Below are positions 16,097 through 43,602 of a stretch of 64,000 nucleotides of DNA, one piece after another; position 1 is the first letter of the stretch, and every line of letters begins with the position of its first letter. Made by a program: the position numbers and the translations under genes. The DNA comes from Sanderia malayensis. Its lineage: Eukaryota > Cnidaria > Scyphozoa > Semaeostomeae > Pelagiidae. The notes under the pieces were generated by a model. The model was not told the origin of the DNA. It did no database searches and worked only from the letters and a program-made list of their open reading frames with translations. Location of the stretch: assembly GCA_013076295.1 (NCBI GenBank), contig RQOL01000024.1, positions 4,045,158-4,109,157 of the forward strand, read 5' to 3'.

Positions 16097-17203
16097 GTAT
16101 GTATATTAATATTGGGCATGATGTGGGTAATAAAGAGAGTTAGTTGAAGTCTGTTTTCGAGGAGGATTTGAGCTTAGTTATACGGATTATTGAGTTAGAA
16201 TGAAAAGGAGAATTGTTGGAATAAATTGTCTTTTGTGCTAATTCTAAGCTGGTTATCGCTAGCTGTACGCATGAAACACCGGCTTAAACCACTCAGTGTG
16301 ACATATGCGTGTTAAAGTCTTGAATCACTAAGTGCAAAATTAGTGATCTAACGCTACGTCTGGAAGCCCATAAAATCCCCGAAATAGTTGCATACTGCAA
16401 CACTGGAATATCGAAATTTTTGGGACATGTTACATGTGGCAATATTGCAGCAAAATTTCTCACTTTTGTTATCAGAAATGAGATAAGCAGCACGTCTATT
16501 TGATTTTCAAGAAATTAAAAATGAGACGATTGACAAACAATTCAATGAAAAAGAGCTTTTCCATTGAATTCATTGTTGTTCCACAAGAAAGAGTAAGATA
16601 TTCCTCCTATGCAAAACTCGATAAAAACAAAATAATATCAGTCGACTGACAAAGAATAATTTGACTTATGACTGTCTAATTGTTCCAGCGGTATTGACAA
16701 CGTGCGACATGATGTATTTTGATCAACGTGCGACATGATGTGCGGCAAGTAATCACTGAGATTTACTTTCATGCAAAATTTGATTTTGGGGGTAACCCAT
16801 TGTACGTGGGCTTGAAAGGGGCATGAGCGTAAGCGAATGCAGCGCGCGAAGTTCCCTACCAGTCAACTGATCTTGAAGTTTTTATTTTCTGTGCGAATAG
16901 TTCTACACAGCACGCACATTTCATTTATTTCCATTGGTGATCACGGCTCAATGCGATAAATTTTCCATTGTCCCCTACAATGCTCTTTAGAGACCCGTTC
17001 CTTCTCAGAAACAACTTCAAAACACAAACAAAGCGGAACTTCATCAACATTGCTGATGAAGTGGTGTACCCAAACATTAACCAAATTGGTAAATGTTATC
17101 CTCTTAAGGTGTTACGCATGAAAGGTTCATATTTGGCGATTTTAGTGTTTCATATCTGTCGGATAAAAAAGCAAGTTAACTTCAACAAGTATACAATACA
17201 AGC

Positions 17204-20200
17204 ATGAATTCCCGCACATGTTGGATGCTAGTTGTGCTTCTTGCTATTTTTGTTGATGATGGCATGGCATGGCGACGAAGAAGAAGAAGAGCTCCACCTC
17301 CACCACCGCCTAATTGCGGCGTAAGTGGTATGTCCGCTCTGCCTACCAACCACGTTTGTTTGCTATATGCGTGCGACATGATAATAGTAGTTATGGCTTT
17401 AGTTTTAGATTTGGAATCAACTTGTCCTCCTTCATTGCTAATTGCTTCATTATTCTTCTTTTATCACCCTGGTCAGCCTCGGCCTAAAGCTGAGCTGAGA
17501 AGAAAAACTGTTGCATGCATGGCAACAATTAAATCAAGGGTTGACTCAACTTTGCCATCAGAAGCAATTTATTTTGCGAAGTTTCCATAAGTAGACTGGA
17601 AAAGCTCTACAGTCATTTTCAAAGCATTCAGTCTTTTAGGCTCCGCACGATGTTGAGTTTACTTGTAGAATTATGGAGTAAATTGGATTGCTTTTAGGAC
17701 GAATTTAATGGAAAAAAGAGCAACAAGTTCTTCAGGGGTTGAACTAGAAAAAATGCAAGATGTGGGATGGACATTGCGAGAATGATATCTAGAGTTAAAA
17801 TTACACTGTTTAATAGAGAAACCAGCTTCCAACATTTTTGAATTCATTTATTAATCTGACTTGACTGCATAAGTCAGACCTACCATATCATTTGAACTTT
17901 TCAGAAAATTCCAACCCTGTTAATTCTGACCAGTCGCATCAAATAAGCACCAAAGATTAGCCAGTCAATTACTTGTCATTTCGATGTTTGTTTACATCTG
18001 ATGTCAATGTTCAACGCTTTATTTCTTCAGCTTGGAGCAGTTGGTCTACATGTTCACAATTTTGCTCAGTTGGTACACAGTCAAGAACAAGATACATAAC
18101 ATATAGGCCAAGTGCATCTTGCATTCAGCCAAGCCTGACAGAAAGTCGTCAGTGTGGTGTGTCTCACGGTGGGTGTGCCCACAACTGTGACAATACTAAC
18201 CACGTTTGCACGTGTAGATCTGGCTACAATCTAATGTCAGGTATGTTTTAATCTGCCTTCAGAAGAATCTTGCCAGAGTATATTTTCAAACCTAACTAAA
18301 CGTGACCATGCCAGCCCAACCACGAGATTACTACTATTTTATGGAAGTATTTATTTTATATTTAGATGGAAAAGGTTGTCAGGACGTCAATGAATGCTCA
18401 CCAAATGGTGGAAAAGGTCCATGTTCTCATACCTGCACCAATAGTGCTGGCAGCTTTGCATGTAGCTGTCCACATAGGTATAATTTACATAGCGATGCTA
18501 AGACATGTTTACGAGCAGCGAACAACCCGCCAAGCCACATCAAATTCGAACAGTACAAACTGTACGAGAATGCAACAGCTGGTTTCTATGTTGGACGGCT
18601 GGTGGCGGTTGATAAGGACGGTGATGTCATGTCCTTCTCCATGAGCCAGACCACATCCACAGCGTCGGAGGTCTTCACACTCGGCTCAATCTTGTGTAGG
18701 AATGTCCCAACAGCCAGCAATCCATTGCAAAGTGAATGTGGAACGCATGTTATATTAATGAGGCCATTGAATTACGAGTCAAAGAGCAGCTACGTTCTCA
18801 AAGTGACAGCCACAGATCCAATGGGGGGCTTTGTCACAAAAGAATTCACCATTGTCATTTTGGATTTAAACGAATCTCCGACAGACATTTTGCTTTCATG
18901 TCAAGGTGTTGCAGATAATAGTACTGCAGACACAATTGTTGCTCAAATCACAGTAAGTATGATAATTCACCATAACATGAAGTCTGTTGGTGAACACCTC
19001 CTTACACAGACACCCATTATGTTCATTCATACCAGAAAGTACTGATAGTTAGAAAACATGGTTTCATACCATAAAATGTCGGAACCAGTTTTAACAACTT
19101 CTGTAAAGCGGTCATATCTTCAAAGCAGACAGCAGAGCTGGCTTAATAAGTAATTTCTATTTCGAGACTTTATTTGTATTCTTTACTTTTGAGTATTGGG
19201 TTCTCTAAGTCTTTTTGTTCTAATGCCTGCGTTGCAGTTGTTTGATAATTTTGACAGAACTCTACCTTCTTTCTCCACCAGAACTAGCTAAACCTATTAA
19301 GTTTTAATTTCTTTAGGTTGTTGATCCAGATATTTTTCATGGTTCACCCCAGCAACACACATGTACAGTGAGTCCATCATCTCCTTTCATTATAAGTGGA
19401 CTTAATTTGGTTGTTGCCAGAAATGCTGCGCTTGATTTCGAGCAGAAGTCTCTATATGTCATTTCCATAACATGCACTGATGCAGGAATACCACCTTTGT
19501 CATTATCAAAAGTGTTCAACATTAGAGTTCGAGGTAATCATGCTCTACTCTTCTGTCTCTTTTCTTATCTCGTCTCCTTTTAATTTTCTCTCTTCTTTTT
19601 TTCTTCTTTTCCATTTCTCCTTGCCTTGTTTTTGCTTCTACTCGCCCATATGTGTCCACCTGTACCCTGTATTCCCTTGTTGCATAATCAAAATAACGTA
19701 AAAGCTCTATTCAGCCCCTCCTCTACTATATCCTTTCTGAAGCTTCGAAATTTGATTGACCTTTATTAAATTTATTTTTAATTTGGGAAACTTTCCATAA
19801 GAGCTTTCATTAAGTCTCCTACCAGGGCTTTATAAGTAAATATCTATTGTGAAATCATCTGTCCCTGGCATATATCTACATCTTGGCAGTGGATTATTCG
19901 ATGGGGCTAAAACTGTTGTTCCGGAATAGGGGATTTTTCGAGGGGATACCAGTTCGAAGATTTGCAAACAAATACAGTGGAATCCCGCTATAACGAACCC
20001 CGTTTATAACGAACTTCCCGCTATTACGAACTATTTTCTCGGTCCCTACAGAGTTCGTTATAGCGGGATTCCACTGTATCTGATTTAGATGCATATATCT
20101 ACATAAGTACATACCTTTGAGTTGCTTCACAATCACAACATTGCGCGATTAATGTTATTTTTCTATTTTGATTATAGCACCCACCTCTCCTTCCACCAAC

Positions 20201-42300: not shown

Positions 42301-43602
42301 AAACGTGACATGAGCCAGTAGGAAATCGCAGTTGATAGCTGAAGTTTAAAACATATACAACAACCAAAGGAGACAGCAAGCAATAATATCAACATAAAAA
42401 TCCAGTATATTGTAATGGAAAATTCAGTTCAGGACATATGTATAGTTTTTTGCTTATATTAAAACCTTGTCTACGATTTCAATAGGAAAACCTGCATTGG
42501 GCATAGAATAAGCTTTATGATTAGAGACCTGAAGATCTGTATCCATAATTGGCGCAAAACGTCTGATAAATTATTTATACTTTCGAGTGTCCAGTTTACC
42601 TTTCAGTTGGTGGAATTTGGAGATGTGTATAAGATATGATATTAGATAGATAAATGACTACTGCAATCCAAATTACAGCATTTGATGTTTTTCAAAGTTG
42701 TCCATCGAATAAATGAATCAAGAAAATATGTAGCAAATGTAAAACATATAAAGAGAAGGTTGGGTTGGATTGGGGATCTCTATTTAATCAACTACTTATT
42801 CATTGGCTCTCATTTTCTTTTGTGTGTTGCAGTCCGATGATGCCATACGGTTTTCAGATCTTCAAGAAGACAGCTTTGGTGAACCAAACCCATTGTATGG
42901 AATATCACCAGAAAACTCACCACCAAGAACAGTTTCTAAAGGAAAGCGATCGTTTTTACCTGCAAATAGCCTATCGTATCGAAACAACCAGCAAACAGGA
43001 ATGGTAAGTTGCCATGGGTATAGTTCTTCAATTATATTTGTAATTATTTTAGGTAGAGTTTTGAAAAGTGTTATTATAGGTTGTTTGTTTAGTTATTAAC
43101 AGTGTGCATTGTGAGAATCTAACCTCGGTATAAATTATAATGCCAAGGAAGTTGGCCCATGCTCTAACAGTGGTAACCCGATATAACGACAATGCTTAAA
43201 AGGGGATTTAGGGGCTATTCTACAACATAACGTCAATTCGATAAAGAATAAAGATTTCATTATACAATATAAATGTTTTTTTCAATCTAGGTTTTTAACA
43301 ATGATCTCTATGGCAAGCAAAACAACATCGAAATTGTCAACCCCGCGTATGGAAAAGTCCCGCGGCAACGCCCCAACGCTGGAGCGGTTGCTAAAGACAC
43401 CGGAGAGCACATATACGATTCAGTTGGAAAATTCCGAGGCAAAGAATTTGTTGATTTGATGTCGGAGGAAGAGAGCTTAAAAGAAAAGGAGAAGCAGTTT
43501 GTTGATTTGCCGCCAAGAGTTGGGAAGTTTCCTCTGTCAAAGAAAGTGCAGAACAAAGATGTGAATGTTTTTAACGAAACAAAGGAAGATGCAGATTGCT
43601 AG
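30338..43602 (+). CDS. Long TSP1-EGF-cadherin(x11) transmembrane receptor with NPxY tail (1884 aa)
   Basis: Exons 30338-30485, 31188-31397, 31810-33323, 33702-33918, 34392-34688, 35033-35332, 36786-37097, 37591-37829, 38124-38271, 38508-38804, 39074-39445, 39717-40085, 40662-40821, 41090-41250, 41611-42038, 42833-43003, 43291-43602. Signal peptide; Arg8/Pro5 run; TSP1 (WSSWSTCSRFC) and EGF to about residue 120; calcium EGF (DVNECSPNGG); sushi-like Cys segment (about 167-255); 11 cadherin repeats (about 258-1475) with DVNEPP/DVNEAP linkers and DPD/DYE calcium motifs; EGF; unassigned Cys module (TDVRCVNEEDCKLL); TM about 1694-1715; RRTKKKK stop-transfer; tail with NPLYG, NPAYG and HIYDSVG. Many repeats sit in single exons with phase 1 at both ends. 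No catenin-binding region was recognised, so it is not a classical cadherin. The tail's NPxY motifs suggest PTB-domain partners or endocytosis. The ligand is unknown. Confidence 0.87.
35336..35477. mobile_element. GTGGCTACTGCCTC hairpin element, copy B
   Basis: Second copy of the element at 26703, with six rather than two GAGT-type units in its middle. It is inserted a few bases after the 5' splice site of exon 35033-35332, so nearly the whole start of that intron is element sequence. Confidence 0.75.
43168..43260. mobile_element. Possible decayed pogo-like MITE end
   Basis: CAGTGGTAACCCGATATAAC in the last intron of the long receptor resembles the ends of the element at 19972. The other end is not clear, so this is at best a one-ended remnant. 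Confidence 0.35.

What the first reader, a model, noticed from the sequence alone, without database searches (positions are those of the whole stretch)
16495..43602. Tandem receptor family shows graded, in-frame loss of the cadherin region (11, 2, 0 repeats)
Three neighbouring genes share signal peptide, Arg/Pro run, TSP1, EGF, a membrane-proximal Cys module and TM, but differ in the middle. Deletions use phase-1 exon boundaries or exact in-frame joins, so every member keeps an open frame (1884, 613 and 366 aa). The TSP1-EGF-sushi-cadherin-EGF combination is unlike classical, Fat, Dachsous or CELSR types known to me, so this may be an undescribed receptor class.
Basis: partly seen in the sequence, partly recalled or inferred. 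Interest (0 to 1): 0.85.

Follow-up and report, generated by a model that had tools for sequence, protein, structure and literature searches.

The report
Three related cadherin-type surface receptor genes
A simple animal carries one long cell-surface adhesion receptor gene and, just before it, two shortened copies that keep the outer head and the membrane anchor but have lost most of the stalk and the inner tail.

Summary
Confirmed: three tandem plus-strand genes. C is signal peptide, Arg run, TSP1, two EGFs, a divergent sushi-like module, 11 cadherin repeats (9 clear), EGF, an unclassified Cys module, TM and a tail with NPxY motifs. A keeps 2 cadherins, B none.

Loss, not gain: a 2027-aa relative from a JGI contig (P0001, 52% identity) has the long layout plus one extra cadherin. 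The finding does not mention that A and B also lack the tail and C's RRRR site.

A and B are not simply decaying: A-B ectodomain dN/dS is 0.35 (0.20-0.62); the A branch rejects neutrality, B alone does not. A gene-conversion tract links the copies.

"Undescribed class" is partly supported. A second locus in the same genome shares the head and the sushi-cadherin core, and P0074 shares the core. Seven library searches gave no description. Best reading: a lineage-restricted adhesion receptor with two tail-less, decoy-like paralogues. Transcription of A and B is untested.

The parts
17204..21277 (+). Gene A, 613 aa, 7 exons: 17204-17327, 18031-18240, 18366-18952, 19317-19533, 20178-20322, 20425-20585, 20880-21277. 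SP, Arg/Pro run, TSP1, EGF, cEGF, 2 cadherins, degenerate EGF, Cys module, TM, 14-aa tail.
   Evidence: Pfam; identical to EukProt P0121
22587..26131 (+). Gene B, 366 aa, 6 exons: 22587-22716, 23243-23452, 24494-24538, 24663-24822, 24938-25098, 25737-26131. SP, Arg/Pro run, TSP1, EGF, truncated cEGF, EGF, Cys module, TM, 11-aa tail; no cadherin.
30338..43602 (+). Gene C, 1884 aa, 17 exons; SP, Arg/Pro run, TSP1, 2 EGF, sushi-like, 11 cadherins, EGF, Cys module, TM, 168-aa tail.
   Evidence: split as P0122/P0123 in EukProt
30338..30485 (+). C exon 1: signal peptide, Trp-rich stretch, Arg8, Pro run; the head signature
   Evidence: the signature is in 7 of 7 N-termini compared
31188..31397 (+). 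C exon 2: TSP1 and first EGF
31810..33323 (+). C exon 3: cEGF, sushi-like module, cadherins 1-3 and the start of 4; A's counterpart lacks 927 nt of it
33702..40085 (+). C exons 4-12: rest of cadherin 4 to cadherin 11; exons 5-12 absent from A and B (tblastn finds only A's own cadherins, up to 37% identity)
40662..40821 (+). C exon 13: membrane-side EGF
41090..41250 (+). C exon 14: first half of the Cys module; A 20425-20622 is 96-100% identical to C in four 50-bp blocks, with 49% before and 74% after: gene-conversion tract
41611..42038 (+). C exon 15: RRRR furin-like site, second half of the Cys module, Gly/Ser linker, TM
42833..43602 (+). C exons 16-17: cytoplasmic tail with NPLYG and NPAYG, ending DADC; absent from A and B
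16482..26890 (+). Tandem duplication unit, two copies (16482-21609 and 21610-26890) carrying A and B
   Evidence: self-comparison

Best explanation
C is a lineage-restricted single-pass adhesion receptor. Shown: the exon structure, domain order, a long orthologue, tail motifs, and which parts A and B lack. Inferred by parsimony: a local duplicate of C lost cadherins 5-11, the cleavage site and the tail; a further duplication gave A and B, and B then lost everything between its EGFs. Inferred from the parts: the TSP1/EGF head binds a ligand or matrix sugar, the cadherins form a calcium-stiffened stalk, a furin-like protease cuts at RRRR in the membrane-side module, and NPxY motifs recruit PTB-type adaptors for uptake or signalling. 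A and B show the same head close to the membrane without a tail, so they most likely act as decoys, local anchors or dampers of C. Function probability about 0.4; the evolutionary history about 0.85.
For: Clean models and exact lengths. Long outgroup P0001, 2027 aa on a 6853-nt contig, hence cDNA-like, with the same order, a tail with three NPxY and the RRRR site. No credible tail-exon match in 16000-30200 (best E 1.8). Ectodomain dN/dS A-B 0.35 (95% 0.20-0.62); branch A 11 synonymous, 11 nonsynonymous, ratio 0.29, p 0.0035. The last 43 codons of A diverge fast from B (dN 0.56, dS 0.62 on 41 aligned codons), yet both keep a hydrophobic stretch. NPx[YF] in 5 of 5 long tails that I chose to compare, 0 of 2 short ones.
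Against: No transcript seen for A or B. Branch B alone is not distinguishable from neutral (9 syn, 15 nonsyn, p 0.08). A and B share an unusual donor (GTACAT) where C has GTATGT, and A has no AATAAA in the 1309 nt after its stop. The Cys module has no Pfam or PDB-sequence match and the AlphaFold model is useless (mean pLDDT 32.9), so cleavage is a motif guess. C's Cys module and tail do not align by profile with those of C405, P0015 or P0074. Gene conversion can bias the selection test.
Confidence: 0.55

Rival explanations
1. A and B are decaying duplicates (pseudogenes in progress) whose open frames persist by phase-1 luck and recent age.
For: 61 of 120 exon-block deletions keep frame anyway; B's own branch is not below neutral at p<0.05; degenerate EGF in A and truncated EGF in B; odd shared donor, no AATAAA near A; a TSP1-exon fragment with a stop at C595 shows that dead pieces of this family exist.
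Against: A-B ectodomain ratio 0.35, branch A p 0.0035; no stop or frameshift in 613 and 366 codons; both keep a hydrophobic membrane-spanning stretch although its sequence changed.
Confidence: 0.25
2. A, B and C are one transcription unit with alternative heads: A and B exons 1-2 can splice into C in frame, so the short forms are isoforms or donors of variable N-termini.
For: Exon-1 and exon-2 donors of A, B and C are all phase 1. At C405 three tandem heads, each SP, Arg run and TSP1, end at phase-2 donors that fit one downstream phase-2 acceptor, and in the filtered ORF list I recognised no separate downstream exons for the first two.
Against: A and B have their own TM exon and stop; EukProt has A as its own gene.
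Confidence: 0.15
3. The A/B pair is an assembly artefact: two haplotypes of one copy placed side by side.
For: Marine invertebrates can be very heterozygous (general knowledge); A and B are the most similar pair, with aligned intron pieces 81-96% identical.
Against: Synonymous divergence 0.136, a large structural difference, and a shared tandem boundary in one contig.
Confidence: 0.07

Closest known systems
P0001 (JGI, unnamed, 2027 aa)
   Same: 52% identity over 73% of C; same order, Arg run, RRRR site, NPxY tail, C-terminal DSTC
   Different: 12 cadherins against 11, longer tail (232 against 168 aa); species unknown
Second locus C405:1214754-1246740 of the same genome
   Same: Head signature; sushi-cadherin core (hhalign 93%); NPLYG/NPLFG/NPTYG tail ending GDTDC
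   Different: TSP1 array, several membrane-side EGFs, more cadherin exons; Cys module and tail not alignable with C
P0074 (EukProt transcript, 2538 aa; taxon not given, identifier style like Oscarella 'm162353' in PMC6526912, so a guess)
   Same: EGFs, sushi-like, cadherins, EGFs, a hydrophobic TM-like stretch, NPLF tail; sushi module matches at 83%
   Different: no TSP1 match, no Arg run; Cys module not alignable
P0015 ('scpid' identifier, the style of Sycon ciliatum in PMC6526912; named Fat-like by its source)
   Same: cadherins, EGFs, TM-like stretch, NPxY and Tyr-rich tail
   Different: N-terminus differs or is incomplete; Cys module not alignable
P0110, Saccoglossus LOC102807105
   Same: EGF_CA, a Cys-rich module, then cadherins
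   Different: LDLR-type YWTD repeats at the N-terminus (PF00058); sushi match at 5.3% is at control level (4.5% in shuffles); its model has no TM or tail to compare

Membership tests
Cadherin superfamily | at least two cadherin repeats | tested here: met
   C 9 clear of 11, A 2; B has none, a derived loss
Classical cadherin | catenin-binding cytoplasmic domain | tested here: not met
   no Cadherin_C match in C at E<=1
Fat / CELSR | LamG domains (Fat, CELSR) and 7TM (CELSR) | tested here: not met
   no LamG or 7TM family in C; that these define the families is recalled
Dachsous | long cadherin ectodomain with its own conserved cytoplasmic domain | not tested
   no Dachsous profile was compared; listed protocadherin-16 hits are 23-25% identical to C
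Hedgling | N-terminal Hedgehog signal domain next to VWA (PMC4054682, passages) | tested here: not met
   neither found in C
Thrombospondin superfamily (mega-, sushi-, poriferan-TSP) | TSP C-terminal region (PMC6526912, passages) | tested here: not met
   absent in C; one TSP1-type repeat only
NPxY-tailed endocytic/adhesion receptors | cytoplasmic NPxY motifs | tested here: met
   2 in C, 60 of 20000 shuffles reach that; 3 in P0001, 0 of 20000; adaptor binding not testable
Head family defined here (SP-W-R6+-[NSD]CxVS-TSP1) | the aligned N-terminal signature | tested here: met
   7 of 7: C, A, B, P0001 and three heads at C405

The most novel reading that the evidence does not exclude
An undescribed early-animal receptor family: cadherin receptors with NPxY tails, cut near the membrane, whose TSP1 heads diversify by tandem duplication. 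At one locus heads become alternative first exons; at the other, whole tail-less receptors. This would give cells variable heads plus built-in decoys, a possible basis for self-recognition or regulated adhesion.
Probability: 0.2. Interest if true: 0.75.

Novelty: new variant of a known kind. Interest (0 to 1): 0.45.

Why it matters
Cadherin receptors are central to how animal tissues arose, and adhesion proteins of early animals are poorly catalogued: in the sponge Oscarella lobularis more than 30% of the transcripts with cadherin, integrin or Ig domains in the expression clusters studied were sponge-specific, a figure its authors say may partly reflect assembly redundancy (PMC8380372, passages). 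This cluster shows a long receptor cut down into tail-less forms, at least one of them under purifying selection, and gives a testable decoy pair beside its parent gene.

Tried and rejected
Structure: AlphaFold2 on P0123 with 3 rows gave mean pLDDT 32.9, so no fold search was run. Cys module: no Pfam and no PDB sequence match at E<=10 (that profile held 6 sequences, including C405 and P0015, whose homology here is unproven). I suspected that the Cys modules of C, C405, P0015 and P0074 are one SEA- or Notch-HD-like domain; profile comparison of module, TM and tail gave probabilities under 3%, so I dropped the claim. A C-terminal search with P0001 residues 1560-1960 found only itself among 3036 candidates; proteins under about 1115 aa, such as P0121 and P0123, were outside its length limit. 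The first protein search scored only 7994 candidates and listed 120 of 337 hits, so absence of other orthologues is weak evidence. The species was not identified. Copies elsewhere: the own-genome search with A gave 39 matches (72 of 192 candidates scored): 22 in this cluster, 9 at the C405 locus, 1 at C595, and 7 single matches elsewhere that I did not follow up; C405 and C595 are. The wider search with C's C-terminal half did not complete.
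Full report
Observation. The window (G000:C155:4045158-4109157, a 184-Mb animal assembly in 918 contigs) holds three plus-strand genes in tandem. I built models from splice sites. My first version of A and B had one wrong donor; with the donor GTACAT, at the place of C's GTATGT, both frames are open. A is identical to a EukProt protein, while C is split there into two models; no record for B was listed, though I did not search with B itself.

Domains. Pfam finds in C cadherin (2e-66), cEGF, FXa_inhibition and EGF_CA over their cut-offs and, below its cut-off, TSP1_spondin (3.5e-6); in P0001 TSP_1 passes its cut-off. 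Of the 11 cadherin repeats 9 are clear and repeats 9 and 10 marginal. The sushi label needs care: Pfam sees nothing in C's module, but its counterpart at C405 has a near-cut-off Sushi match, and the C/P0001 profile matches C405 at 93% and P0074 at 83%. The control, 50 column shuffles of the joint C405/P0074/P0110 alignment, reached at most 4.5%; P0110 at 5.3% is not meaningfully above it. The Cys module is unclassified.

Direction. P0001 aligns with C from the signal peptide to the C-terminal Cys and has one more cadherin. Its 2027-aa frame on a 6853-nt contig, where C needs 16 introns over 13 kb, points to a cDNA, though an intron-poor gene is not excluded. With it as the only outgroup, the short forms are derived.

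What was lost. A lacks 927 nt inside C's exon 3, C's exons 5-12 and exons 16-17. B lacks all between a truncated EGF exon and the membrane-side EGF, plus the tail. Both lack the RRRR site that C and P0001 share. tblastn of the tail against 16000-30200 gave best E 1.8; the lost cadherins matched only A's own cadherins. Phase is the simple reason for open frames: 11 of 16 introns of C are phase 1, and 61 of 120 block deletions keep frame.

Selection. On 284 three-way ectodomain codons (of 362 aligned; I dropped A residues above 556 and B residues 118-140, the TM/tail and the broken EGF), A-B has dS 0.136, dN 0.047, ratio 0.35 (95% 0.20-0.62; 1 of 2000 resamples at or above 1). A-C is 0.42 and B-C 0.48. 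Polarised by C, branch A is 11/11 (ratio 0.29, p 0.0035), branch B 9/15 (0.48, p 0.08). So neutral decay is rejected for A and undecided for B. With nothing dropped, A-B is 0.42 (0.29-0.62); the 43-codon TM/tail end of A against B (41 codons aligned) alone is 0.90.

Conversion. A-C synonymous divergence runs from 0.026 (exon 14, where dN/dS is 1.57 on 6 changes) to 0.80 (first shared cadherin); the 200-bp tract 20425-20622 is 96-100% identical to C in four blocks, with 49% before and 74% after. The copies have exchanged sequence, which weakens simple dating and the selection test.

Family. A tandem trio of heads at C405 (SP, W, R6+, [NS]CxVS, TSP1) precedes a TSP1 array, EGF, sushi, many cadherins, EGFs, TM and a tail with NPLYG, NPLFG and NPTYG. 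The three heads end at phase-2 donors that fit the one downstream phase-2 acceptor, so they could be alternative first exons; no RNA tests this, and I did not build a full model of that gene. The five long tails that I chose carry NPx[YF] (C 2, P0001 3, C405 3, P0015 2, P0074 1; shuffles reaching the count: 60, 0, 0, 32 and 222 of 20000) and neither short tail does. But tail and Cys module of C do not align with C405, P0015 or P0074 (probabilities under 3%), so common descent is shown for head and core only.

Literature. Seven library searches (listings seen, the last without a hit) gave no description of this order. I saw passages of PMC6526912, PMC9729800, PMC8380372 and PMC4054682. The main survey of early cadherins, Nichols 2012 (PMC3420208), is not held, so a description there cannot be excluded.

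Conclusion. A real and orderly tandem receptor cluster: a long, conserved, apparently lineage-restricted cadherin receptor with two tail-less paralogues, one clearly constrained. Decoy function is the best guess, not a result.

Noticed in passing
G000:C405:1214754-1218981 (L017, L018): Three tandem heads (SP, Arg run, TSP1) before one long cadherin gene, with phase-2 donors fitting the same acceptor: possible alternative first exons.
   Followed up: partly
G000:C595:60439-60582 (L022): A lone TSP1 exon 90% identical to C's at the protein level, with a stop codon: a dead fragment of the family.
   Followed up: partly
28998-29265: Open stretch between B and C: hydrophobic run, His/Asp repeat, RRRW and GNCQTN before a phase-1 GTAAAT donor, no in-frame ATG; may be a decayed or foreign first exon.
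   Followed up: partly
26191-26641 and 29430-29902: 89% identical repeats rich in CCCCTCGAATAAG units between B and C, also with inverted matches: a mobile-element-like repeat.
   Followed up: no
26703-26828 and 35336-35477: 88% identical stretch shared by B's downstream flank and C's intron 6, starting 4 nt after C's exon 6; likely a dispersed repeat.
   Followed up: no
19966-20085: 33-bp inverted repeat inside A's intron that stands in place of C's exons 5-12: a hairpin-like insert at the deletion site.
   Followed up: no
11416-14085 (-): Single-exon class C GPCR (7tm_3 6e-53, ANF_receptor 1e-46).
   Followed up: yes
55684-56097 (-), 60292-60726 (-): Exons of a protein kinase (2e-22) and a cytochrome P450 (3e-40).
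   Followed up: yes
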